Below, in pieces: positions 14,556 to 35,928 of a DNA stretch of 35,928 nucleotides (position 1 is the stretch's first letter; every line of letters starts with the position of its first letter). The stretch is taken from assembly GCA_002812745.2 (NCBI GenBank), contig NCSJ02000406.1, positions 1-35,928 on the forward strand, written 5' to 3'. The translations under genes were made by a program, and so were the position numbers. The stretch is from Scytalidium lignicola. Taxonomy: Eukaryota; Ascomycota; Leotiomycetes. The notes below the pieces were generated by a model, which was not told where the DNA came from, ran no database searches, and saw only the letters and a program-made list of their open reading frames with translations.

Positions 14556-17500
14556 ATGTCTACAGCCGCATCTCCGTCTCCGCAAGCGCGGATTATTTTT
14601 CAAGACGCGTTCAACCGCTTCGAACAAACAGTACATTTTGACGATAAGAGAGAGTTTCAGCTGACAACCCTACAAGATGTGAGAGAGGCTGCCCGACAGA
14701 TTGAACGAGATTTAGGGGATCGAGGCTGCCTTCGAAATATGAGACGTCTTCAACCCTTTTTCAATGGACTTGATCAGTACTCCAAAATCATCGAAGTTCT
14801 CTGCAACGGAACGCCCTACCTGCCTTATATATGGGTGAGTGGAACCTGAAGGCTTGACCATCTGAATCATCTGAACCATTGTGCAGGCACCTGTAAAACT
14901 CATGCTCAAGGTGGGTCGTCCCCCAGATCCAGGATATCAAATCGAGAATTAAGAATCTCGCAGCTCGCCTCAGACTTCTTGTCCTCTTTTGACAAGCTGA
15001 TTGGCGCATATGTTCGGATAGCTGAAAATCTCCCACGCTTTGATAGACTCAGTGTCGCGTTTCAAGGCACTTCGGATTTTCAACAGGTGCTTGCTATGGT
15101 ATATTCGGACATCCTTGAATTTCACAGGCGCGCTTACAAGTTCTTCCGTCGACGAGGTAAGAAATGGATCCTGTGATGATGCTATAGTTCTTGCCCAAAT
15201 GACTTTCCTTCAGGCTGGTCATGCTTCTTCGACTCTACCTGGGCCCAATTTGATCGCAGATTTTCTGGAATTCTCGAAGACCTTGCAGTCCATAGCGATC
15301 TTGTAGACAAGGAGGCGAATGCACTTCATATCTCTCAAGCAGCAGAGATGAGATCCCGAGCGGCCAAGGAGATTTCAGAGAGTGAAAGGCATCGAAGTTC
15401 CATCCAAATGCAGGCTGTAAATGTGTGGTTAGATGCGAACTTGGCATTGCTCCATGATGAACTAGACCGGCTCGCCTACCACTGTTACCCGGGATCCACA
15501 GATTGGATCATAAAAAGTTCGAAAATGAATGCATGGCTACAAAACCGTACTGGTCAGCTTATATGTTGGTTGGTGGGAAAACCGGGAGCAGGGAAAAGCG
15601 TTATCTGCTCTAAATTGATACAGGACCTGCAGAAGGATCAACAGTGTAGCACGATTTTCTACCTCTGCAATCACTTCAGTACATCTCCCAACGAAGCAGG
15701 GCAGATACTCAGATCACTAGTATCACAAATGGTGCAACAGAGTCCGGACCTTGTACCTTACATTCTAGACGAATGTGTATCTCGTGGTGTTCCAGCATCG
15801 GGATCGCAGCTGAGGAAAATGATTCCCAAACTTCTCATGGGTTTTTCTTGTCTACGCATCATTGTTGATGGCCTGGATGAGATCGAGGAGTCTCAGCAAC
15901 GGCAGGTTCTGTCAGATCTCATCGACTTCGCCACTAAGCCGCTTGGTCCTGGGTCATCCTGCAAAATTCTTATTGCAAGCCGTGACGTGACCGTGATCTC
16001 CAGATTCCTGTCACAGAGAATGGTCTTATCACTGGGGGATGACCTTCAAGCTTTTCAAGCGGCAGTTCAGCCATACGTGCATCACGAACTTAGCCAGATA
16101 CGCAACGCCTTATCGGACATTGAGGTAGAAGAAAGCACCATGGCTATCATTGAGCGTCGTTTGGTCGAAAAAGCGAATGGTAACACCCACTACTTCACTG
16201 TTTCCACCGAATCCGGAACTGACTATTTCAAGGAATGTTTCTATGGGTTCGGCTTGTTATTGCCACTCTGGAGGCTTCGTACACTGTATCGGATCTGCTT
16301 AAGGCCACTGAAACACTTCCGGATGGGATAGAGAGAGCGTAAGTTGTGCAAAAATTCTGCATATATACCTCAGCTTAAATTGCACAGTTATGGAAGGATT
16401 TTGGAACATATTAGCAGCCGTCTTCACCCTAAACAGCGAGAAATCGCAATGCAAATATTAGAATTGGTTTGCTTTGCGAGGAGACCATTAAAGCCTTACG
16501 AAATTCAGTCAGCAATTGGGCTTGGTCAGCATGGTATCACTTTCCACAATGGCGTCACAGCCTCGGAGACGATGCTAGACTTATGCCGGCCACTTATCGA
16601 GCGTGGGCCTCGCGATGCTGTCATCTTTGCGCATTTCACAGTAAAGGAGTATGCGAGAGCCCATTTGAGTCCTATGTATTTTGTGTTCTCGTACTGAGCT
16701 TGTCTAGATTCATGTTGCACACAATAAGCGGTCCTTTTATAACCGCCCTCAATGCCGAAAGGAACATTTCTCTTGCTCTGGTTACTTACTTATGCTCGAG
16801 CTTTGCGCTTATTGACTCTCGGGTTAGAGACGAGGAGAAGATCGCCGATGTTGCAAAAGGGTTCCATGGTCTCCATCTATACGCAAACGAGTTTTGGGTG
16901 GCGCATTTTTTGGAATACATCGAAGTCAATACTGAGCTGGACCAGCATATGCTTGATCCAGTTCTGGAACGGGTTCTGGCTCTTTGTGATGCTCATGATC
17001 TCATTACTCTTCCGACGGATGATACCGAGGAAGAGGAGGACTTGGTATCGCGTGAGAGTCAACAACCAGACGGTCACCCTGCACTGCAAAAGTTGGAAGC
17101 ACATTTTGACATACGTGACTTTCTTGGAAAGATTATCGAATATCGTGAGAAAACACACGAAGCACAGCTTCAAGCATCTGGAGGTGAGTATTCAGGCGCT
17201 TAACTTGGTGTTCATCTCTCAGACACGTATGCCACTGACGCACCAAGACCTCCCGATTCTGGATCCAGAGCTTGATCCTTTGATGTTCTCTAAACTTCGT
17301 GTGAAATACACTCGACTTGTATGTCAAATCCTAAATATGAACCATGTGGATGGTATTAGCGACATACAACTGGCCAAATTTCGACAAACGGAGGGCCAAA
17401 GTGCCTTTGTATGCCGCTTTCAAGGTTGCCTTCGCTCCACCGATGGCTTCTCTACTAGGTCTGAGTGCGAAGCGCACGAATTGGGTCACGTTCGACGATT

Positions 17501-20945: not shown

Positions 20946-22579
20946 GTGACACCCTCAAGGTTCCATCCGCCATGATTGCGCAAACTTCTAAATCAAGCCG
21001 GATATCAGCGGAAATGAATCGGGATGGAACGCCGACCAATTTCTAGTCGGAGATGAGGTCGTCAAGATGGGATGAAAGATGCTGGCCAATTGTTGATGTT
21101 GATGGAAGAAGTCGTCGGGAGAGGGAAAAATTCATCTCCGTCGATCTAGGCTCGCTAAAGTAGTTCCCGCTCCCTAAATAACCCCTGAATGAACTCGCGA
21201 TCCATGATGATTTGTATCTCGTGAATTCTCAAATGGCACTGTTTAAATTCAGCACACAGAAAGGCTGGAAATAATGTTGGTTGGCTACCCTTGTGGATTT
21301 TGTGTGTTTTTCGAATCGATCCGCCTTTACACTCCTCCAATATGTTTGGCTGCCATGACTTTGCACCGGTAATGATGACTCCGATGTTGAAGAACAGTTG
21401 ACTAACTAGCTAGAGAAAGTTCATGCCGGCCGAAGACACAGAAAAAGCAACCGAATTTTGGCAGGGGATATTTATCCGTGATACACATAGTGAAGGTTGT
21501 TATCGCAGTGTGGACCCCCAGCGCTCAGATAGGCAGGTTACTAGAAGTTCATTGCAACGCTGCAGCCTGAACTAAATCAATGCTTTAAAACCATGTGATA
21601 TTCTATCTTATTCTTCCAAACTATAGTTTTCATCTTAGCTACTGTAGTCAATTGTTTTCGCCATATGATTCTTTTTCAACATTTCTCAATTAGATTTATA
21701 TCAAGACTTGTAAAAGGGTATGGCATTAATATAATCTCATATAATATACGTCAAATTGTACAGCGATTCTTTGTAGGCTTATAGCTGTGAGCAGGATTGT
21801 TATCTTCGATAAATAATGGCTCAGTTGAAAGGCGTAAAAGGTAGGCTACAGCTGCAAAAATAAACATAAATGGTGTAAGTCGTTAAGTAGCCTAAATCAC
21901 ACAGACTTTATTCGGTAGGTCGTTACATGATCCACAGTTGTGATAAGCTGAAGATGGCATTTTGAGACACAGCCAATAAGACATCAAGCCTTGCAATAAA
22001 GCAGGGAATAAAAACCCAACAGCTGAATTGTGCAGATCTGTATGAGAACTTCACCAAGGTTGAGTTTAGGCTGCTCGACTGTGACTGTGCATGATCTTCA
22101 CCGACTAGTTTCCGTAGCTTTATGTGCACTTAATGCTTATTCTGCAGATAGAAGCTGAGTAGGCGTATAATAGACTAATAGTCAGCCCTGTGTGAAGCTT
22201 TAAAGGCTATTTTTTTACGTAGTATAAAGCCAAAGTAGTATGTAATCATCTCAATATATATTTAGTGCTTATTTCACAGATGGTAGCTGAGTAGGTGCAT
22301 AATAGACTAATAGTCAGCCTTGTGTGAAGTTTATAGAAGCTANTTTTTTTATGTAGTATAAAGTCAAAGTAGCGCGTACTTCACTGATTTCGGATGCGAA
22401 GGTGAGAGATGGACAATAATATAGCAACCTGACATATGCTCCGCATTGAAGGTAAAATGAAAGATATTGAATATCAGGACAGTATCACCTGGGAAACAAA
22501 TTTTTGTTTTTTAGGGCTCGTCGCCTGTGGCACTTTCCTTGGTCTGACAAATGGAGAATAAGTATGCTCCTTTTCATTG
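20946..22579. other. Intergenic region with tandem duplication
   Basis: Nothing coding is supported. After about 21600 the sequence becomes AT-rich and includes the duplication at 22134-22375. Short frames at 21155-21340 and 21923-22129 have no motif. Confidence 0.45.
22134..22375. repeat. 132-bp tandem duplication
   Basis: Copy 1 begins TGCTTATTCTGCAGATAG at 22134 and copy 2 begins TGCTTATTTCACAGATGG at 22266. Both continue GCTGAGTAGG, CATAATAGACTAATAGTCAGCC (T in place of C in copy 1 start), then TGTGTGAAG and a T run followed by GTAGTATAAAG.CAAAGTAG. Most differences are transitions. An N beside the second T run leaves its length uncertain. Confidence 0.8.
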
Positions 22580-24141: not shown

Positions 24142-25699
24142 GATGCGGGTCAAAGTGAAGGCGTATGGGATGACAGCGAGACTCGAGATGACCTTCTTAC
24201 TTCCGATGGAACAGCCTGGACTTCATCTTCTGATAAAGAGAACTTTCTTGAGTCCCGCCCAGAATCCGCCTCTCAATATCAAACCCACCCAGTAACTCGA
24301 TGTCAAAAGGATGCTGTGACTTCTGGGATCTCTGGGCAACTGATAACGGCCCTGGCAGGGCCGAATCAGTTGGCCCCCAGTGGAGAAACTGAGGACATGT
24401 TGTTTATGCACTACTTAGATCTGGTATTCTATATTCAGTATCCATTCTTTGATGCACATAAGAAACAGAAGAGAGGCTGGCTACTTTCTATCCTGAAGCG
24501 AGTCAAATCGGCATACCACGCAAGCCTCGCTTTAAGTGAGCATCATCTGCTCTCGATACAATTTCGAAATTCTGAAACAACCACTTCTCTTATGAAGCTG
24601 CGATCCAAGGATAGTTACTATTACCTAGCAAATCAGGAGATGGAACTCAGCGTTGGGGGGTCGAGTGGGTGGGATGAAAGCATCCGCCGGGTGCGTAGCC
24701 TTGAATGTCTCACTTGTATTCTACAGCTCTTGTTCTTGGAGGTAGATAAACTGATTTCCAACTTTCCTGCCCACTTGCTGACTCTATATTTCTGCAGATA
24801 TTTGCGGGCGGTGCAGATAATTGGCAAAAGATTCTCCGCACAGCTGCACATTTTCTTCCGGCAATCATACAAGGGTCGACTTCTCTTGTACCAGGGCATT
24901 AAGAGATCGGAATCTTAGGAGCAGCGAGCATATACAGAAGTCTCTGGGTGCCAATGAGAATGAGGCAATTAACTTCTTGCTTGGCTCCTTCATAGCTCTT
25001 GATATTATTTCTTGTGCCTCTACTCGTTCAACACCTCTGTTGGATATCGATCATATATCAATGCTTCAAACGCTTGATGTTGATTCAAGAAGCTTCATAG
25101 GCTGCGATAATACTATCATGATTCTCATCTTCGAGATATCTCAATTAGATAATTGGAAAAAAGACGCTAATGAGTCTCAAAAGCTTAGCATTGTAGAGTT
25201 GGCAAAGCGTGGAAGTCGAATCGAGGAGCGTATACACCACAAGATTGCTGAGATCGAGAATGCATCTTTGTCTAGGCAATCCTCGAAGAGGGATTCGAGA
25301 TGGTTGTTGATGTCGGCTTATGCTGATATCAACAGAATCTTTGCTCTTTCTGCAATTGTCTACCTCCACGTTGTTATTTCTGGAGCCCATCCCGAGCTAC
25401 CAGAAGTGAAAGAAGGCGTATCGAAGAACCTAGCTGCTCTGCAGAGCTTGGAAGATAAGGAACTGCTGGTAAATGCTGTTTGGGCATTCTGCATTTCTGG
25501 GTCCTTGGCAGTTGAAAGTCAGCAAGGGTCTTTTCGAGAACCTTTTTCGGCAGCGAAGGTCACTAATTCTACTGTTGGATCATTTGCAGAGGCTTTCAAG
25601 ATTATGGAAACATGTTGGGAGATGAGAAGGAATAGTTCATGCAGTTGTGATTGGGTTTCTGCAATGGACAAACTCGGTCGATATGTTCTGCTGCGGTAG
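24142..25699 (+). pseudogene. C6-type fungal transcription factor (Fungal_trans_2-like), frame-broken
   Basis: The plus strand encodes the regulatory half of a C6 zinc-cluster factor: LITALAGPNQLAPSGETEDM, FMHYLDLVF, GWLLSILKRV, YHASLALSEHHL, CILQLLFLE, a 56-nt intron (24742-24797), then NWQKILRTAAHFLPA. That frame ends at TAA 24900-24902. The family pattern resumes in another frame with NEAINFLLGSF, DIISCASTRS, SIVELAKRGSRIEERI and a natural-looking end MDKLGRYVLLR at 25699. The frame change near 24893-24903 is not at a homopolymer, so it is probably real. No intact Zn2Cys6 motif is present upstream. Factors of this family often control neighbouring secondary-metabolite genes. If the break is real, cluster control may be lost or altered. 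The first start codon is not resolved. Confidence 0.6.
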
Positions 25700-25953
25700 C
25701 TGGGTGGGAAACTATGAGAGCCTCTGTACGAGTCAGAGTCACGGACATGCTTCACAGGGTCTTGGACTGCTTTTGCAATACAATGAAACCCATACTCGCA
25801 TCTTTAGATATCCTGCTTCACCCTAGTAGTGTGGCTCACAGAAGATTCCTCTAGAGATTACAATTAGTTTGGGAATTCTAGAGTAATAAGAAATCCATGT
25901 CAAGTTTCTAGATGTGGAATTTTGATCACAGATATTAGTTATTCTATATTTCT
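25700..25953. terminator. Convergent 3' region between factor and UstYa-type gene
   Basis: The two genes end 254 bp apart in tail-to-tail orientation. The spacer is AT-rich, as expected of 3' ends. No specific polyadenylation signal was resolved. Confidence 0.3.
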
Positions 25954-26696
25954 TCAATTATTTGGCAAAGAAGTGTGGTAACCTTTCTTTAAAACACGAT
26001 CATATAACAAGGCGGACTGTCCACATTTCCTGGTATCGTCTGCTCCGTTGATGAAGTGCTGTAGCGTACCATTGATGACAGGAGGTCGCTCTATTGTACT
26101 GTCCGCATTGCATAACAGAGTCTTGTAGAGAAAATTCATTAGTTCAGTTGAGCATGATTCAATTAGAATGATCTTACCTGTCTCAAATAGTCCATGCAGT
26201 GTGGCCAATGGAGGTCGTCGTCCTGATCTATTCCAACGAATTTCCCTTCAGACGAAGCTTGGAGCGCCATTCTCAACCCGGCGAGGCAATGTAATTGATG
26301 AAACATAGAAATCATCCCAACTGTCTCCTTCCCATCCAGATTGCCGTCTGAGGCCCAGATCAATCCTCCATGCCCTGAAGTGTCATTCACTGTAAGAGCT
26401 TCCCAAAGGACATCTTTTCGGTGGTCAAGTGTCATGTAATCTGTGTTACCACCAAACTTTTTTATCGAGAATTCTGTCTGTTGTGGACATTGCGCCGAGA
26501 ATATAGCCAACGGGAGACAGGGAATCAGTATTCCAAGCAGTACTAAGATAATCAAGCGCTCTGGGGTGAAGCGTGACCGTAAAGAACGAAAAGTGAAAGT
26601 CTTCAAAGATATAGAACGAGTCCTTGTGTATTGAGATGTGGGAAGTGATTCAGTACTGCTCTCGTCGAAATCCTTTTCAGGAAGCTTTGTGTACAT
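25954..26696 (-). CDS. UstYa-type (DUF3328) membrane oxidase
   Basis: Exons 26178-26696 and 25954-26121 are joined in phase across a 56-nt intron (CAG|GTAAGA, branch ACTAATG, ACAAG|ACT), giving 228 residues from ATG 26696. A basic ~47-residue cytoplasmic tail leads to one transmembrane helix (about 48-68, LIILVLLGILIPCLPLAIFS). The lumenal domain carries the two family motifs HQLHC (133-137) and HWPHC (163-167), then YLRQTLLCNADSTIE and NGADDTRKC, all typical of UstYa proteins. In ustiloxin, asperipin and phomopsin pathways, UstYa-type proteins cyclise the precursor peptide oxidatively in the secretory route (established knowledge). The precursor gene lies 1.9 kb away, so this is probably a cross-linking enzyme for it. 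Confidence 0.88.
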
Positions 26697-27199
26697 ATTG
26701 GTGGTAAACTTGAGTTGAGAATAACTATGAGTGCAAGCAAGAAAACCTCAGTGCAATGATATAGGAAGCAACCTAGGAGAACTACATCTACCTCGCTCAA
26801 AGATCGAGTGTCTCTATACTACAGTGGCGGTAACGCTACTGACTGTACTTCTGGACAGCCGCGCGCAGGTCTCTCGGCGGCATTCAAGGCAGCGCAGTCG
26901 CATTATCCATACGGAATGGAATCTTACTGGGTGTAACAGACAGCACGGCAAGACGAGCAATTTTGATCGGCTTCGAACCGTTGCTCCTAGTGTCTACAGA
27001 AGATGGGCCTCCAGCTAATATCAAAACCCGGAGGAGTTCAGATACTGCTTTGCACGTGAAATACCAAGAAGCATTCACTTCAACGTCACAACTTCATGGG
27101 AGAGATATCAAAATGATCATGAAAAAAAATGCTTCGTCAAGTCATATTTAGCAGAGACAGGTTCAATAAATTTCGCAGTAATTCCAGGTTGTCATAACT
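26697..27199. promoter_or_regulatory. Upstream region of the 25954-26696 gene
   Basis: The minus-strand UstYa-type gene must be driven from here. I see no gene on either strand and no clear operator, apart from a GC-rich patch with GCCGCGCGC near 26858. Confidence 0.3.
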
Positions 27200-28076
27200 C
27201 TAAGGCCTCTCCATATGCCCATGCCCATGTCCATGCTCATGGCCACCAACATCTCTCTCTCCTCCAAGCTTTACGCCGAATCCCGCACCTATTGCATCCA
27301 GAGGAATATTTGCCATAAATATTGGATAGCAATGCTCAACATGAGATATTTTTTTTATTAGTCCCTTTAAAAATTTAAATAAAAAAAGGGTTTTATAAAT
27401 ATTTATCTATGAGGAAATTAGCTAAAAAGCTATTATAATACACACCGTAGGTTAATATTTGAGTCACCTAACTTTCTCTATCATACCGATTCTCCAACAT
27501 GAGACCCTTAGCCCTCATCCTGAACTCCTTTCTCCAATAAAAGGCGCAATGTGCAACATGCCAGCCAAATGTTGAATAAAACATCGCGTGAGGTTTCGGC
27601 AAGTTTGCTAAAAGTCCAACTTCCTCCAAAGTCATGCGTCTCGTTCCATTACTGTCGGCCCAATACGTCCACTCGCCATTGGGTCGATCACCAGCATGTT
27701 CAAATTCAGCCGTGAGTTCATCGTCGTGGCAGTGCATTGGTAGCCAGCAGGCAGCCAAGCTGTCGTATTTGCAGCCCAAAGTCTCCGCCTCAGAAGTTGA
27801 GCTGCCACACAGACATTCAATAGGCTTCGGACCGATCCCGTGGTCTTCCATGGCATGGAGATTTGCAACGTAGGTCCCGAGGGCCACGACCAAGACGGCC
27901 AAAAAGATGATAATGCCGTACAATTTCCTTCGCCACGTTGTATACTGTGGTCCGGGAATGACTTTAAGCTCAACTTCACTGTCTTCAGAATACGAAGAGT
28001 CTGGTGAAGATACCAGTGGATGGTAGGTCTGGGAGGCCTTCTGGGTGTGTTTGCCCCAGGAAACAGGTGAATTCAT
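27200..28076 (-). CDS. Divergent UstYa-like membrane protein interrupted by an AT-rich block
   Basis: The first part (27468-28076) encodes 202 residues: a Ser-rich tail, one transmembrane helix (about 53-72, YGIIIFLAVLVVALGTYV), then CLCGSSTSEAE, GCKYDSLAACWLP, CHDDELTAEFE, GEWTYWAD and the motif HVAHC (173-177) followed by FYWRKEF. It stops at TAG just after ENRYDRES. About 100 bp of nearly pure A/T follows. Then 27200-27363 reads on in a frame holding HVEHC (27329-27343), PLDAIGAGFGVKLGG and a His-Gly tail ending HMERP. That second HXXHC motif completes the UstYa signature, so I infer one gene with a degenerate intron or AT insertion between its parts. No splice pair keeps frame exactly. 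An A8 run beside the join may be miscounted. Alternatively, the protein simply ends at 27468. Confidence 0.65.
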
Positions 28077-28563
28077 TGTCGAGGTGGAGGTTTCAATATG
28101 ATATTTTTTGCTTCGCTGGAGGTTCAGACGAGAAATTGAGCAGCAACCAGCCTAAAGAATTGAATGCTTGAGTCTTGGGTCGGACGGCCAGTAAAGTTCC
28201 ATTGGTTCTGTGCAGGATGTTGACTTCCATAACTTGGAAGGACATTTGTGGGCGTGATCTACCAAAGGCGGCTGTCACTGATGAGCTCCACTTAACGCGC
28301 GGTATGCTGTTGGATGTTTGAAGAAATGGCATTGTTCGGTACCTGGGCCGCCGCGGCGACATCTTAGAACCGCGGAAGGAATGTGAACATGCACGAGCTG
28401 ATTGGAAACTTCTACCATACTCGAGAAGCTTCCCTTCATGAGGAGTATATGAACCCATAGAGCCCCTAAGTACAAAAGGCCCTCAAAAACTACAGCTACC
28501 ACTATCATTAACTCATCTTTCAAATATCTAAGCCTCCGGTTTCTTACACAAATAATCGCCAAG
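28077..28563. promoter_or_regulatory. Bidirectional promoter of precursor and UstYa-like gene
   Basis: The 487-bp spacer separates divergent starts at 28076 (-) and 28564 (+). It contains two CCGCGG palindromes at 28351-28356 and 28370-28375, 19 bp apart. CGG half-sites of this kind are typical targets of C6 zinc-cluster factors. A TATAT element at 28446-28450 sits about 115 bp before the precursor ATG, followed by a CT-rich leader. Regulation by the neighbouring factor is inference. Confidence 0.4.
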
Positions 28564-28896
28564 ATGAAGATTACTTTCATCAGTTTCATCTCACTTGCAG
28601 TTGCCATCTCAGCACTGCCAACTACCAACGTCAAGATGGGAGTTGCTACTGCTAGGTCCCCTCACGAGGAGGGGGCAGACGAATACGGTGCGAAGTGGGC
28701 CAAGCGTGCAGAGGATGGTGCAGATGAATATGGTGCGAAGTGGGCTAAGCGTGCAGAAGATGGAGCAGATGAATATGGTGCGAAGTGGGCTAAGCGTGAA
28801 GAAGATGGAGCAGATGAATATGGTGCAAAATGGGCGAAGCGCAGAGGATGGTGCAGACGAATATGGGGCGAAGTGGGCTTAGGACCATGTAAGTAA
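28564..28896 (+). CDS. Kex2-processed repeat precursor peptide of a RiPP (dikaritin-type) cluster
   Basis: 110 residues from ATG 28564. A signal peptide (MKITFISFISLAVAISALP) and a short leader are followed by four units ending at Lys-Arg codons 28702-28707, 28747-28752, 28792-28797 and 28837-28842. The unit is AEDGADEYGAKWAKR (first copy PHEEGADEYGAKWAKR, fourth starts EED). Lys-Arg is a Kex2 site, so cleavage should free four nearly identical peptides around EYGAKWA. After the fourth unit the frame runs into a non-repeat tail ending GLGPCK. A fifth unit is present one frame over (28841-28882, ending in TAG), because this copy lacks two bases compared with the others. The design (signal peptide, identical cores, Kex2 sites, flanking UstYa genes) matches dikaritin precursors such as those of ustiloxin, but the core is one I do not recognise. 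A possible donor GTAAGT at about 28890 could mark a 3' intron. Confidence 0.85.
   Translation: MKITFISFISLAVAISALPTTNVKMGVATARSPHEEGADEYGAKWAKRAEDGADEYGAKWAKRAEDGADEYGAKWAKREEDGADEYGAKWAKRRGWCRRIWGEVGLGPCK
28663..28882 (+). repeat. 45-bp tandem repeats encoding the peptide core
   Basis: Units are 28663-28707, 28708-28752, 28753-28797, 28798-28842, and a final copy to 28882 that is two bases short at its start and ends in TAG. Copies differ mainly at third codon positions (GGT/GGA, GCG/GCA, AAG/AAA, GAC/GAT, TAC/TAT), and the core residues EYGAKWA are unchanged in all five. This pattern suggests selection on the peptide, not only recent duplication. Confidence 0.95.
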
Positions 28897-29791
28897 GGTT
28901 TCCCAGATACATTTGAGTTTCTTCAGCTAAAGCTCTATTAAGGAGAGGAGTAACGACTAAGCGCTAGTCATATATCAGTGAGATATGTCCTAGAGCTAGA
29001 TACTCGTCTAGGATATGATTAGGGAAGGTCGTTCGGTGACTTTGTTAGTTGTAGTCAAGTTTCTTGTAGACTAAACAAATTCACACTCATTGAAAATCGC
29101 TAAATTATGTGCATCCGACATACCTTGCCAGGGTAGTTAAGTTAAGTGACCTTGATTGTAATTGAACCCATAAACCTGAATGGCCAGTAGACAAATAATT
29201 ATACCTGCTACTTGCATACTTGAAAGGGTTCTCGGTGCGAAATTCTTGGAACGTTCTAGCTATTCACATGTACCAAGAATTAGACATAATTGGATTTCTA
29301 TTTCGCCTCTTTCAGCTCTCCCGGAATATGAGTTGGATTCCATATTCAGCATACAAATTTAGTCACTTTCACTAGATACTGTATTGGCGGATGGGGCACG
29401 GCTGAGGCGGCGGTGCGGGACGCTGCCATTGACCAAGCGCGGGCGGGATAAGCTTATGTGAGCACGGTTCGGCAGCACGCCCGTTCTCTACCGTGCGCCG
29501 CCATTTTGGTGCATTTCGCAGATTTCCTTTGTGCTGACATTTGCAGAAATGCCCATGCCAATCCAATGTCGCGCGGAGCGATAATTCACGCGCAATGCGG
29601 ATCGGGCAATTCGAGCGCGCGGAGGCTACAAAGCTTACAGATAAGAATCCCGATCAAGATACATGGTGTTTCCGTTTGTAATAATACGATACAATCACAC
29701 TATTCAAAGTACCTGAGCTTCACAACAACTACGTACTTCAGTCAGCCACTCCCATCAAAACTTCCACGAGCCCAGCATTCCGAGTACCACA
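28897..29791. other. Intergenic region upstream of the second UstYa gene
   Basis: It contains the 3' region of the precursor gene, then a GC-rich patch (about 29390-29640) with many GCG/CGC words that probably belongs to the promoter of the gene starting at 29792. No frame here carries a recognisable domain. Confidence 0.4.
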
Positions 29792-30886
29792 ATGTACGAC
29801 GAAATCTCATCCTCTGAGGGACTACTCTCTCGCTCAAGCTCGCCGTCCTTCACGTCTGAAGAAAAACTTGAAATCCCGAGGCGTAGAAACGCTCTCGTTC
29901 TTCCAAAAACTACCTACATCCTGATCGCTCTGTTAGTTTTGTCTCTAATAGCCAATGTCGTTGTGGTAGTCATGAATACTGCTATTTCAAAGGCGAATGG
30001 GCTGCTCGGGGATGAAAAAAGAAACCGCAAACCTCAGACAAAGCTTTACTGTGAGTATTTGGCCACTCAACCCAGAATTGATATCACTGAAGACAAAGTT
30101 GTGTCTAACTTTTCGCTTAGCCCCAGCTCAAGATGCACTGGAATACAAGATCACCAAGTTTGAAAGTTCGATTTATGGGGGAGAAACAGAATATCAAGGT
30201 CCACTGACTGAGTATAACAACCGATTATGGAAGCAAACCTACTCCCGTATGTACAAACCAACGGTTTGAGGTTTCCTAGGATGAATCAACTACCAAATCA
30301 TTGACTGACCAGTTATAAATAGATATGAACACTCACATTACCGAAGAAGAGGCAAAACAACTTCCGAATAAGACGATGCCGGAGCCTCCGTATGAAGGCA
30401 GCGGATACCTAATTGTACTGAACGTATTTCACGACTTGCATTGCATAGACAGCCTCCGTTTGGGACTATATTACTTTTTAGACGATCAGTGGAACAGCAC
30501 CTACAATCCCTACACTCTTTTTGAACATCCTGACGATGCACTTTGGGCCAAGGGAGGGCGCGACTTGAGTATCATGCACTTAGACCATTGCATAGATGCT
30601 CTACGCCAATCCACACAGTGCAATGGGGACATTACCCCCAATGTATACCAGTGGAGCGAGAAGTGGGGAGAAGTCCGAGCATGGGCTACGATAGTTCATG
30701 AGTGTCGGAACTTTGACAATGTAAGTGTACAGAAAAGCCATGAAAAATTGAATTTGCTAACAATCAAACAACAAGATCGTAGATTGGGCGAAGTCTCACT
30801 ACTCCCGGTTGCCCGTTGCGTTTGGAGACGGCCCAGCAGCTGGCAAGTGCGCATGGGACGATCCTTGGACTTGTCTATGGGCTTGA
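29792..30886 (+). CDS. UstYa-type (DUF3328) membrane oxidase, four exons
   Basis: Exons 29792-30050, 30121-30246, 30323-30720 and 30776-30886, with introns of 70, 76 and 55 nt (GTGAGT/TTAG, GTATGT/ATAG, GTAAGT/CAAG with a GCTAAC branch), give 297 residues with every junction in frame. The N-terminal Ser-rich tail and RRR precede a transmembrane helix (about 41-61, TYILIALLVLSLIANVVVVV). The first splice creates YSPAQDALEYKITKF, the hallmark start of the UstYa domain. The two motifs are HDLHC (165-169) and HLDHC (214-218), followed by IDALRQSTQCNGD. The C-terminal extension (IVDWAKSHYSR, then CAWDDPWTCLWA) is long for the family and Trp/Cys-rich. It is transcribed in the same direction as the precursor and lies 0.9 kb downstream. 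Likely role: oxidative cyclisation of the precursor peptide. Confidence 0.9.
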
Positions 30887-31722
30887 GTTGAGGTTCTAAT
30901 AGGAGCTATCTTCGAAATATTGTCCCAAATTTATCCTGTGAAACACTATGCCATGTCCCACTCCAAGCCCTAGCTGTCCATTCTGATATACGAAGAGCCT
31001 CCTATTATTTGAGGAAGGGGTGGAGGAAGGAGGTCGCTAAGAAAAGGGGCTCGCTAACAAGCCTACTCCTATAAGTCGGCGAAATACGGGCCCCTTTCTG
31101 GCTATTTTCAGGATTTTCAGGCTTCATATATACTCTACCAAAAGCATCAATTTTATGACTTAACTAGTCTTTAATTAGAAGCTAACTAACAATAACGCTT
31201 TATAAGTACATAAACCGAGATGCTCTTACTTCTTTATTAATGTCTTTAAATAATCTTGTAGTAATTTATCTTATTCTTCTATTATTACTATTTTAATTAT
31301 AAATTAATTTTATTAATTCCTTACTACAATATAAGTTATATAAAATAAAATAAAAGATAAAAGTTTATGCTTTAACTGTTATTTAATTATTAAATTTAAT
31401 TTATAAAGAGAAAACTTAAAACTAATTTAAATAATATTTAACTACTACTTTATTATTATTTAACCATTACTTTCCTTACGCTTACTGATCTCTCTAAATT
31501 GGAAGAGTAATTAAAGTTATAAAAGTGGATGTGCTTTTGGAAGGAGAGACCTGAAAATAACCGACAAAAGGCTTGTATTTCACGGACTTACAGGGGTGGG
31601 CTTATAACTCGTAAAGAAGCATGCCCCCTGAAAGAATCGCTTGAAATGACTCATGTTTTGGTGCCGCGCGCAAGGAACTCTGCCCAGGCAGGAAGTTTCA
31701 CACCTTCCTAATATGTCAGCTA
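30887..31722. other. AT-rich intergenic tract
   Basis: After 31130 the sequence is strongly AT-rich with no long frames and looks RIP-decayed. I see no supported gene here. Confidence 0.5.
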
Positions 31723-32640
31723 ATAGTTGGTGGGCGCTCGGACGGTGGGAAATTTTCGCTACCAACCACCCCTAGGTGGTTGGCACAAGTATTCCATCAC
31801 CTCAAAGTAATCCGTCACCTTTCGCGAACCCCAAACACTAAAGTCACGTACCTTCATTATGCGTTTTGCTGTCAACACCATACAATATTTTAATCAATAT
31901 ACTTCTCAAAATGCCAAGGACCTCTTCTACAATGATTGCCCAACGATTGGATAAAGCTATCGAATGGTATTTCGATAATCAAGACCCTGAGGATTCTGCT
32001 ACAATTACAGCCACTACATGTATATTCAACCTCAAAATCAACATACTTCACAAAGCAATCCAACGCCATTCAACACCTATTAAAAGCTCTAAACAAGGTA
32101 AAGAACAGCCTTCTTTCCTGAAGCCTTACTAAATTAACGTATTGTACTCCTATATTATAACATAAGCATATGATAACAACCCATTAAACAAGGCTATACT
32201 TATGAGGGCAACAAAGCACTTTCATGGCACTAATAAAGAATCTTCAGTACAGTGGATACACAACTTCTTAAAGTCTTATTCTAACCAATTCTATATAATT
32301 ATAATTAAACCCATTGAGAAAAAGCGAATTTAAGTACAAGATACAAAGTTTATAAAGGAATAGTTCTTGAAATATAATAATATTCAGCAGGAAAATAGGA
32401 TTTGAAAGGAGAATATCTATAATATAGATAAGACAAGATTCTGTATTAGTATAGTAAAAGGAGAATAAGTTATTGTACTAATATATATTAAAGAGGTATT
32501 AAAGATAAATATATTTGAATAATACTTAATTTATTAATAAATTAGTAGTTATATGAAAGTACCTTTTAAAACTGTAAATCCCTTATAATCATAGAATATG
32601 TATTAGCTGATAAAAGTGCTTTTATTCTACTTATTATACT
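31723..32640 (+). mobile_element. Decayed pogo/Fot1-like DNA transposon
   Basis: The 5' end holds a perfect hairpin (arms CCAACCACC 31762-31770 and GGTGGTTGG 31775-31783) shared with the element at 1-215, and subterminal repeats at 31790-31830. ATG 31911 opens an 73-residue frame (MPRTSSTMIAQRLDKAIEWY), which resembles the helix-turn-helix start of pogo-family transposases. Further on, 32409-32468 reads ENIYNIDKTRFCISIVKGE, close to the first catalytic-Asp segment of that family (IYNMDETGF). Many stops and the high A/T content show it is dead. The 3' end was not found. Confidence 0.6.
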
Positions 32641-32724
32641 TATNAAAAAGTATATAGATTATAGAAAATTAAATCTAAGAGAACTTTCTTAGAAATATTC
32701 TTATACTTTTTACTCCTTCAGGAT

Positions 32725-33087
32725 ATTATTACAAAACTACGCCATCCAGGTCACTGGATAGCCAAGGGTAAGGTAGATGTTCAGGGACAATGGAAATGTG
32801 TAACACACAAGCAAGCGACTAAGTCCAAGGTAAGGTCTAGTAATGTATTTAGGTTGAACACAAGGAGTTTACTCTCATGTTCTTACAGTGTGCTTATATA
32901 GATAATGAAATACAATGGGATCGCTGGATTGTTTTAATCCCTCAATCCAGGTCCTTGGATCATTGGATTACTCTGATTTAGTGATCCCAGTCATATGACC
33001 TCCTAATTGTTAGGTTCTCTATGCATACTTGTTATGTACCAAGCCTTAGGCTTACACTAATTAACTTGTTCGGTCAAACCTATAACA
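32725..33087 (-). repeat. 3' long terminal repeat of the Gypsy element
   Basis: On the minus strand this segment begins TGTTATAGGTTTGACCGAAC directly after a polypurine tract, and contains a CTATATAAG promoter-like motif (near 32895). It is less AT-rich than its surroundings. The distal boundary (about 32725, possibly 32797) is uncertain because no second LTR lies in the window for comparison. Confidence 0.55.
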
Positions 33088-33100
33088 TTATCCCCTTTTT
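33088..33100 (-). other. Polypurine tract of the Gypsy element
   Basis: The minus strand reads AAAAAGGGGATAA immediately before the LTR start TGTTATAGG. This is the expected position and composition of a plus-strand primer. Confidence 0.6.
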
Positions 33101-35928
33101 GCATTAGTGTTATCTTAATGCTTAACTATTATCATGAACAATCTTATTACTTATTAATTCTTTCCTTCTTTTAAACATGCTATCTAAACGTTTAAATCCT
33201 GATGACAATAATTTACTAAAACGATTATGATTAAGGAAACATTAAGAAAGATTAAGTCTTGGTATTTATATCCAAAACCTCAAGATCAAAGTAATGTCTT
33301 GTATATATTGCAAACGAAAAGGACTATTATGTAAGATGGTTCTTGATTCTGATCATTGCAAGGAATACGTTTATAATGGCTGCAAATGTGATGGTGAGTA
33401 TCTTCACATACCCTCTTAAGAGTTATATAAATGTGAGGACAAGTATCTTTCCTTTAAGTATAAGAAGACTTCTATTACCTTGACTTAAGCTTTTTAGGCC
33501 TTGGCTGAGGTTACTACTTGTCTTGCTTGTTTGGACAAACAGTAAATCTTTCTTTGAAAGTATGCTAAGGAGATAGTTTGTTGTGGTCTAAAAATCCTGG
33601 ATGAACTAGATGTTAAGAAGAGCAAAGAGAAGTAAGAGAAACAAAATTCTTTATAAACTTTAAAGTTATATTCTATTAACTTAAATGTAACTTCTTCTTC
33701 TGTTATCAACCTCTTCTTTTCTAACTTTGTAATTTTATCGTTTGAAAATCTATTTTAAGATAAGCTTGGTAATATACCTTTAGTAACTTCTCATAACTTA
33801 TGAGATTAAAAGTAAGTTCTTATTTATTCTTACTTTCTGGATATCCTATTTATTTAACTAAATATTATAGTTTTTTATAATATATCTTATAGTTAATGAT
33901 TTTCTTAACTTCATATTTTCTTTCTGGATTAACTTCTTCTAACATTAGTGTTTAAGTGTTTTCAAGTACTAGTTTAAGAAGTGAAACATAGAAGATAGGA
34001 TATATCTTAACTGTTGTTAATAACTTTAATTTATATATTAAAGGTTTATAAACTTCCTTAATTTTATATAGTCTTATCTTTACCTAGTCTAGTTTATTAC
34101 TTAGTCTTGTTGTTTTAATGTTTTTCCTAAGAAGATAAACTTTATCCCCTTTTTTTGTACATTAATTCTATCAAGTATTTGTAATTGTAATACTTCTTTA
34201 TTCTTTCTTTAGTATATTGAAGTAAATTCTTGATCTTTTCTTGTATTTCTTCTATTTGTTTTATATAGATCTTTACTGATTCACTTGTGGATTCTAATTC
34301 TAGTCTAGTACAAAACCCTTCTAGTTCTTGTTTATAATTTACATAGAATAGAGTAATCTTGATTGATTCATGTAATATACCATTATACACTATTTCTGCT
34401 ATTAACAAGTAATTAACCCAATTATCTTGATTATAATTGATATAGTATTTAAGGTATCCTTCTAATTATCCGTTTAAACATTCTGTTTTTCCGTTGGTTT
34501 ATAGATGTTATACTGTTAACAACTTCCTCTTGACTCTTATTCTTATTATTAATGTCTTCTAAAACTTAGATGTAAATCTAGTATTTCTATTAAAGATTAT
34601 CTGTTTTGATAATTCTTATTAAGACATTATTCTTTGTAAAAATATATTAGTTACTTCTTCTACTCCTTAAGTCTTCTTGAACAGTTCAAANTGTTGTATA
34701 ATTAATATGATGTTCAATTATTACAAAGATAAAGTTATACTTGACCTTTGTCATATGATTTGTGGAAATTAGTAGTTTTATAATAAAATTTTATTTGATT
34801 AGTTTCCATGGATTGTTAAGTATTTGTGTAAGGTATAATTGTCCCTAAGGCTTCCTTCTTAGATTCTTAGCCTTCTTATAAATCTTGTATTCTACAATTA
34901 CTTTCTTAACTGTTAATTGTAATTTCATGATAAAGTAATCTTTATTAATTTAATAATAATATCAAGTTACTCTTATATGTCTGTTATATAGTAGATTATA
35001 CTATTCTCTGACAAATTCTTCTGTTAGTTTTGTTAGTATATATAATCTTTTGTTCTTATACTAAATATTTTCGATTTTCTCTTACTTGTCCTTGATTATG
35101 TTTAGTAAAGTATTTTCCTCTTTTTNCCTTTTTNGATTACTTCTCTGATTTGATTAGCCTAATATTTGTTTGTTACTATTGTAATAATTATAAGTTGTCC
35201 TTTATTGTATACTAAGAATTCACTTTCATCTTCCTTCAATATAAGTTCACTTTCTTCTTTCTCCTTAACTGAGTACTCAGGTTTTTAGTTTAAAGCGTTT
35301 GTTCTTCTATTGTCTTCTCCTTTGACATAAGTAATCTTAAAATCATATTTAAATAACTTCTCTGCTTATTATACTTGTCTTATATTCAATTATTTAGTTG
35401 TTATGAAATATTGAAGGTTATGATAATCTGAAAGTATATCAATTGTCTTATTAGATTTAATAACATATATCCTTCAATACTTTAAAGCTTTTATAATAAC
35501 TAACATTTCCTTATCTAATGTTTAATAATTCCTCTTTGTAATGTTCAGCTTTCTTGACTAAAATACTAATAGTATTTAATAATGTTGTTTATTGATCTGT
35601 TATGATTATGATAATATAATTCTTAATGTTATATTAGAGGTATTAGTTTTAATTCTTATTCCTTTTTCTAGATTGAAGATTCTCAAGAAATCTCCTTTTA
35701 CAAAGGTATTCTTAATGTTTTAAAATGCTTCTTTCATAATGTTATTCTACTTATAAGCTTTAATTCTTTTTTATAAGTTTAGTTAATGGTATAAAGATTT
35801 TGGAATAGTCTTTTACAAATCTTTGGTAATAGTTAGTTAACCTTAAGAAACTTTATAATTGTTTAATTGTCTTAAGTGTTTTTTTATTCCTTGATTGATT
35901 GAATTTTATCATCAAGGGTTTTTTATTC
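33101..35928 (-). mobile_element. RIP-decayed Ty3/Gypsy retrotransposon, 3' half of pol
   Basis: On the minus strand, from the window end inward, I can read the end of reverse transcriptase (GDFLRIFNLEKGIRIKT, about 35640-35730), then an RNase H segment (DILSDYHNLQYFITT, about 35395-35450). An integrase C-terminal part follows at 34142-34408 (EIVYNGILHESIKITLFYVN, ESVKIYIKQIEE, ERIKKYYNYKY). This RT-RNaseH-IN order is that of Ty3/Gypsy elements. Almost every other stretch is stop-ridden and extremely A/T-rich, with TGA and TAA codons where C-to-T change is expected. The 5' half and 5' LTR lie outside the window. Confidence 0.75.

What the first reader, a model, noticed from the sequence alone, without database searches (positions are those of the whole stretch)
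24142..30886. Apparently undescribed RiPP cluster built on an EYGAKW repeat precursor and three UstYa-type proteins
A secreted precursor with five copies of one core and Kex2 sites is flanked by three membrane proteins, each with two HXXHC motifs, and by a C6-type factor. This is the minimal architecture of dikaritin-type fungal RiPPs (ustiloxin, phomopsin, asperipin). I recognise no known product with this core. No methyltransferase, tyrosinase or flavoprotein is seen, so the product may be a simply cyclised peptide.
Basis: partly seen in the sequence, partly recalled or inferred. Interest (0 to 1): 0.88.

Follow-up and report, generated by a model that had tools for sequence, protein, structure and literature searches.

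The report
Decaying fungal modified-peptide gene cluster
A wood-mould fungus carries a small gene cluster that looks built to cut out and chemically modify a repeated short peptide, but one of its enzyme genes is interrupted by a repeat element, so this copy is probably a relic of a pathway that related fungi still keep.

Summary
The window is a Scytalidium lignicola contig. The finding is largely real. A secreted-looking precursor (28564-28896) has 15-residue units ending in KR: four in frame, a fifth out of frame. All 7 variable sites in the 30-nt core GADEYGAKWA are silent third positions, so the peptide has been under selection. Genes A and C are UstYa/DUF3328 proteins (PF11807). Gene B is not in PF11807: it belongs to a separate family with a Cys-rich domain plus two HxxHC motifs, at most a remote UstYa relative. 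In this genome 10 of 14 B-like places lie within 10 kb of PF11807 matches, where 1.3% of the genome lies. Gene B itself is split between its two motifs by an AT-rich repeat element, and the regulator's domain is split over two frames. The protein search returned two metagenomic precursor relatives; one probably sits beside a gene-B relative. Best reading: a dikaritin-like RiPP locus with a core I did not find in print, probably decaying in this strain. New member of a known kind; the B family is the better lead.

The parts
28564..28896 (+). Precursor: hydrophobic start, four in-frame units ending GADEYGAKWAKR, then an out-of-frame fifth copy
   Evidence: relatives P0001 and P0002
28666..28879 (+). 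Tandem array, period 45 bp, 4.8 copies
   Evidence: TRF; core variation all silent
25954..26696 (-). Gene A, UstYa (PF11807), HQLHC and HWPHC, one intron 26128-26177
   Evidence: 55.3 bits, E 1.1e-14
27468..28076 (-). Gene B, first piece: membrane helix, Cys-rich domain and first motif HVAHC; B family, outside PF11807
27349..27470 (.). AT-rich repeat element inside gene B; 95% and 96% copies at C285 and C648 (ends approximate)
27200..27346 (-). Gene B, second piece in another frame: second motif HVEHC and His-rich tail (ends counted by hand)
   Evidence: conserved in relatives
29792..30886 (+). Gene C, UstYa (PF11807), HDLHC and HLDHC; introns 30051-30120, 30247-30322, 30721-30775 (third one placed by hand, agreeing with P0039)
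   Evidence: (134.9 bits)
24142..25699 (+). Regulator: Fungal_trans_2 domain over two overlapping frames; no zinc cluster found

Best explanation
This is a dikaritin-like fungal RiPP locus. The precursor enters the secretory pathway, a Kex2-type protease cuts after each KR, and the membrane-anchored double-HxxHC proteins A, B and C act as copper-dependent oxidases (or, for B, an oxidase partner) in the Golgi lumen on the released or still-joined core, most likely at its tyrosine and perhaps its tryptophan (YGAKW). Shown: repeats, KR sites, gene families of A and C, conserved motifs, selection on the core. Inferred from the families: signal peptide function, Kex2 cutting, copper chemistry, the cross-link. 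In this strain the locus is probably non-functional or altered because gene B is interrupted.
For: Array and KR sites; core changes all silent; PF11807 in A and C; B relatives with two HxxHC in 33 of 36 and a predicted order of elements like that of gene C's relative; B-like places near PF11807 matches in 10 of 14 cases; precursor relative P0002 and B relative P0005 both on a 1,842-base contig, and the two genes at window spacing would need 1,543 bases; B relative P0018 and C relative P0045 both C. sublineola, both on a 23,047-base contig. DUF3328 genes accompany 22% of Kex2-processed repeat proteins but almost no pheromone precursors (PMC7329392 abstract). DUF3328 enzyme CctR is copper-dependent through the double HxxHC motif (PMC12435403 parts 1-2 of 3). 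Interruption.
Against: No product is known. No B or C relative on the 6,089-base contig of P0001 appears in the lists (gene A was not searched). No tyrosinase, methyltransferase, P450, transporter or peptidase domain in the 31 of 44 window ORFs of 110 aa or more that were scanned. Contig identity is inferred from equal lengths only. The genome is an Ion Torrent draft, so the breaks may not be real.
Confidence: 0.7

Rival explanations
1. The locus is intact and active in the living strain: the breaks in the fifth unit and regulator are sequencing or assembly errors, and gene B is spliced in an unusual way.
For: Ion Torrent, reads 140-260 bp (PMC6256649 whole text), against a 214-bp array; the out-of-frame fifth copy still has an unchanged core. 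Of 24 splice choices, two with a non-standard GC donor keep both HxxHC motifs.
Against: Those two drop about 14 residues that are largely conserved, and GCTAAG is a poor donor. The element has two other copies at 95-96%, so it is not an assembly invention, and relatives read through.
Confidence: 0.25
2. Gene B is not an oxidase but the copper-delivery or electron partner of UstYa enzymes.
For: 10 of 14 B-like places lie near PF11807 matches. His-rich stretches outside the motifs in 9 of 36 B relatives against 2 of 48 UstYa relatives (Fisher p 0.008). Extra invariant Cys residues. The CctR authors suspect such a partner (PMC12435403).
Against: 33 of 36 B relatives keep both HxxHC motifs, as a catalyst would. 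27 of 36 have no His-rich stretch by this measure. On 20 of 27 contigs with PF11807 matches no B-like place lies within 10 kb. Related sequences are not independent, so the p-value is generous.
Confidence: 0.2
3. The repeats release linear signalling peptides (pheromone-like), and the UstYa genes beside them are unrelated.
For: KR-spaced repeats and a secreted start also describe alpha-pheromone precursors; modification was not observed.
Against: Nearly all annotated pheromone precursors lack DUF3328 neighbours (three exceptions; PMC7329392 abstract), while two PF11807 genes flank this one. The core has Tyr after acidic residues, like the EDYXI of ustiloxins and phomopsins (PMC6339444 passages).
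Confidence: 0.1

Closest known systems
Ustiloxin and phomopsin loci (dikaritins)
   Same: Secreted precursor with repeated cores between KR sites; DUF3328 proteins; Tyr after acidic residues (PMC6514808 and PMC6339444 passages)
   Different: Core EYGAKW instead of YAIG or the phomopsin core; no tyrosinase, methyltransferase or S41 peptidase seen among the ORFs scanned
Asperipin-2a locus (aprA, aprY, aprT, aprR)
   Same: Few genes, DUF3328 protein with no tyrosinase (PMC6514808 passages)
   Different: Two PF11807 proteins plus one B-family protein here; no transporter or reductase found; different core
Kex2-processed repeat proteins (KEPs)
   Same: At least 3 repeats of 8 residues or more between Kex2 sites (PMC7329392 section 13)
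   Different: No difference known; listing of this precursor in that survey not checkable. Genus Scytalidium is in its types G-2 and G-3
CctR, the copper-dependent DUF3328 hydroxylase
   Same: Membrane helix and HxxHC(x)nHxxHC on helices (PMC12435403; models)
   Different: CctR acts on a non-ribosomal peptide; B lies outside the family model and has an added Cys-rich domain
Lichen UstY loci, clans R1 and R2
   Same: UstY-based loci not matching known products (PMC12048977 passages)
   Different: No repeated precursor was found there; here it is clear

Membership tests
Kex2-processed repeat protein (KEP) | At least 3 tandem repeats of 8 aa or more between Kex2 sites, none over 100 aa | tested here: met
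   Four in-frame 15-residue units ending in KR
Kex2-processed repeat protein (KEP) | Signal peptide | not testable with these tools
   Hydrophobic start seen by eye; no SignalP
Dikaritin | DUF3328/UstYa protein beside the precursor | tested here: met
   A and C over the PF11807 cut-off
Dikaritin | Tyrosinase and methyltransferase (older definition; asperipin-2a has neither) | tested here: not met
   None in the 31 of 44 ORFs scanned; definitions from PMC12048977 passages
Dikaritin | Cyclised product | not tested
   Needs chemistry
UstYa (PF11807), genes A and C | Score over the curated cut-off and two HxxHC motifs | tested here: met
   55.3 and 134.9 bits, cut-off 25
UstYa (PF11807), gene B | Score over the curated cut-off | tested here: not met
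   Gene B: no match at E 1. Of 21 members, 9 match weakly, best E 1.2e-4; P0012 20.1 and L011 17.1 bits against 25
UstYa superfamily, gene B family | Membrane helix, then two HxxHC motifs on successive helices | tested here: inconclusive
   Relatives fit: 33 of 36 have two motifs, predicted order like gene C's relative, both motifs paired by hhalign at E 0.0046 but probability 7.6% (4.9%). The window's copy is split. No superposition could be made
C6 (Zn2Cys6) regulator | Zinc cluster | tested here: not met
   Pattern absent from all frames; Fungal_trans_2 present

The most novel reading that the evidence does not exclude
Gene B belongs to an unrecognised second family of double-HxxHC membrane proteins (signature CG-x4-EA-x4-C-x8-W-x4-C, then two HxxHC motifs) that works as a dedicated partner of UstYa oxidases, as copper loader or electron donor or as a second oxidase, across many fungal peptide pathways.
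Probability: 0.4. Interest if true: 0.65.

Novelty: new member of a known kind. Interest (0 to 1): 0.42.

Why it matters
The core adds one more to a large, mostly uncharacterised set of fungal repeat peptides. More useful is the B family: most relatives keep both copper-type motifs, the standard domain model misses them, and in this genome they cluster with UstYa genes. If B is a partner of these enzymes it would supply the accessory protein that the CctR authors suspected, and genome mining would gain a marker. The repeat element inside gene B would also be a direct view of such a pathway decaying.

Tried and rejected
Gene B as a single-HxxHC protein: my first reading stopped early; relatives showed a second motif, then found downstream in another frame. 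Gene B as an ordinary intron-containing gene: 24 splice choices were listed (4 with GT, 20 with GC donors); none keeps the whole conserved stretch. B loci as richer in repeat precursors: 3 of 7 loci with B and PF11807 against 1 of 8 with PF11807 alone, Fisher p 0.28, not significant; 13 of 27 PF11807 contigs were not fetched, the stretches fetched were of unequal length, and the scan sees only uninterrupted frames. Solved structures: gene C gave two chance-level hits (E 0.21), the B profile none. NCBIfam gave nothing over a cut-off for 5 proteins. Fold searches never started. Horizontal transfer (gene C 94% identical in Acephala, 51% in the Xylogone hit) was not tested for want of a genome-wide baseline. 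One broad paper search listed 40 of 1,069 papers, most of them noise.

Full report
What and where. The gene C protein matches B7463_g11598 of Scytalidium lignicola at 100% over 82% of the query, on a contig of exactly 35,928 bases; the assembly held has 46.85 Mb in 664 contigs. The published strain DSM 105466 (47.7 Mb, 826 contigs) was sequenced by Ion Torrent with reads of 140-260 bp (PMC6256649, whole text); I take it to be the same genome. This matters for the array and the frame breaks below.

Precursor. At 28564-28896 lies a small protein with a hydrophobic start and four in-frame units ending GADEYGAKWAKR. TRF sees 4.8 copies of 45 bp. Among five copies all 7 variable sites of the 30-nt core are third positions and silent; random placement gave that in 0 of 200,000 trials, and in 8 of 200,000 for the six sites of the four in-frame copies. 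The pattern used to find units allowed only silent variants, but all five copies placed by TRF fitted it. Residues before the core do change. The fifth copy lies in another frame yet keeps the core. No second copy was found in the genome (one match). The search of 5.8 billion clustered proteins returned two relatives (it needs shared 5-residue words and similar length): P0001 with six units, and P0002 with two, the second breaking off inside the core.

Flanking proteins. A (230 aa) and C (297 aa) belong to PF11807, each with two HxxHC motifs. C's best-scoring named relative is Acephala macrosclerotiorum, 94%. B has no Pfam match over a cut-off. Its 36 relatives, of which 20 were aligned with it, share a Cys-rich domain and the HxxHC motifs; in a 21-sequence alignment with six paralogues from this genome the Cys-rich signature and both motifs are invariant, and 33 of all 36 relatives have two motifs. 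Nine of 21 members touch PF11807 weakly, best E 1.2e-4. Profile comparison pairs both motifs with those of UstYa at E 0.0046, but with a probability of only 7.6% (4.9% in a first try). Predicted models of relatives show the same order, membrane helix, then strand, HxxHC helix, HxxHC helix, strand, for C (P0039, pLDDT 75.4) and B (P0003, pLDDT 78.8). So B looks like UstYa and may descend from it, but is not a PF11807 member.

Gene B is interrupted. The first piece stops after the first motif; the second motif lies downstream in another frame. Between them are about 120 AT-rich bases that recur at two other places, at 95% and 96% identity; those two places resemble each other beyond the element too. 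Relatives read straight through. Of 24 splice choices none keeps the whole conserved stretch; two with a non-standard GC donor keep both motifs but drop about 14 residues. The regulator's Fungal_trans_2 domain lies over two frames; whether by intron, error or lesion I did not resolve.

B and UstYa in the genome. B-like matches occur at 14 places, PF11807 matches at 54 (both are lower bounds). Ten of 14 B-like places lie within 10 kb of a PF11807 match, where 1.3% of the genome lies; without this locus 9 of 13, binomial p 7e-15, which treats places as independent although the ten share 7 contigs. Of the other four, two have no PF11807 match on their contig, one is 16 kb and one 48 kb away. Repeat precursors were seen at 3 of 7 B-plus-UstYa loci and 1 of 8 UstYa-only loci, not significant.

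Conserved neighbourhood. P0002 (precursor) and P0005 (B relative) both report a 1,842-base contig from the same source; at the window's spacing the two genes need 1,543 bases. P0018 (B relative) and P0045 (C relative) are both Colletotrichum sublineola on a 23,047-base contig. Contig names were not shown, so this is inference from equal lengths. Against it: nothing in the B or C lists has P0001's 6,089-base contig, though B lies only 487 bases from the precursor in the window.

Mechanism. In known loci Kex2 is thought to cut the repeat precursor, and DUF3328 proteins (with a tyrosinase in some) cyclise it through Tyr (PMC6514808, passages; PMC7329392, abstract and sections 6, 7, 13). The DUF3328 protein CctR is a copper enzyme that uses O2 and lost activity when HxxHC residues were replaced; its authors suspect an accessory protein for electrons or Cu(I) (PMC12435403, parts 1-2 of 3). 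Here ADEYG resembles the EDYXI of ustiloxins and phomopsins (PMC6339444, passages), so a core starting at Y (YGAKW) is likely; the cross-link partner is unknown and Trp is a guess. B relatives carry His-rich stretches more often than UstYa relatives (9 of 36 against 2 of 48, p 0.008), and the window's second B piece ends in one. That makes B a candidate for the partner, though its two motifs equally suggest catalysis.

Novelty. A full-text search of the open-licence library for EYGAKW found 0 papers. 'Undescribed' therefore means not seen, not proven. Other window genes scanned (31 of 44 ORFs of 110 aa or more) gave kinase, SNF2/helicase, NACHT and C2H2 domains and no tailoring enzyme. Verdict: a new member of a known kind, probably decaying here, with a protein family worth following.

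Noticed in passing
L039:3502-4221 (contig C44), minus strand: Another repeat protein with KR sites, carrying DEFGPW/DEFGSW and HHTEAQIKAKEAA-type units, lies between the closest B paralogue (C44:82016) and PF11807 matches (C44:89237). Its DE-aromatic-G-W motif recalls DEYGAKW.
   Followed up: partly
L041:3282-3668 (contig C365): Repeat protein with many DIESVDKR units near a B-like gene and a PF11807 match.
   Followed up: no
L018:8280-8486 (contig C188), minus strand: Repeat protein with PPYHPNIDVVDKR units near the strongest PF11807 match of the genome.
   Followed up: no
window 22140-22380: A stretch of roughly 100 bases appears twice in tandem, by eye.
   Followed up: no
window 15180-16331: NACHT/NPHP3_N NTPase gene of the fungal NLR type (2.3e-32).
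   Followed up: no
window 31000-35000: AT-rich end of the contig (GC 0.35 falling to 0.23), so genes beyond gene C may be missing from view.
   Followed up: no
gene C, window 29792-30886: 94% identical to Acephala macrosclerotiorum, but the Xylogone hit is only 51%: possible transfer or patchy loss, untested.
   Followed up: no
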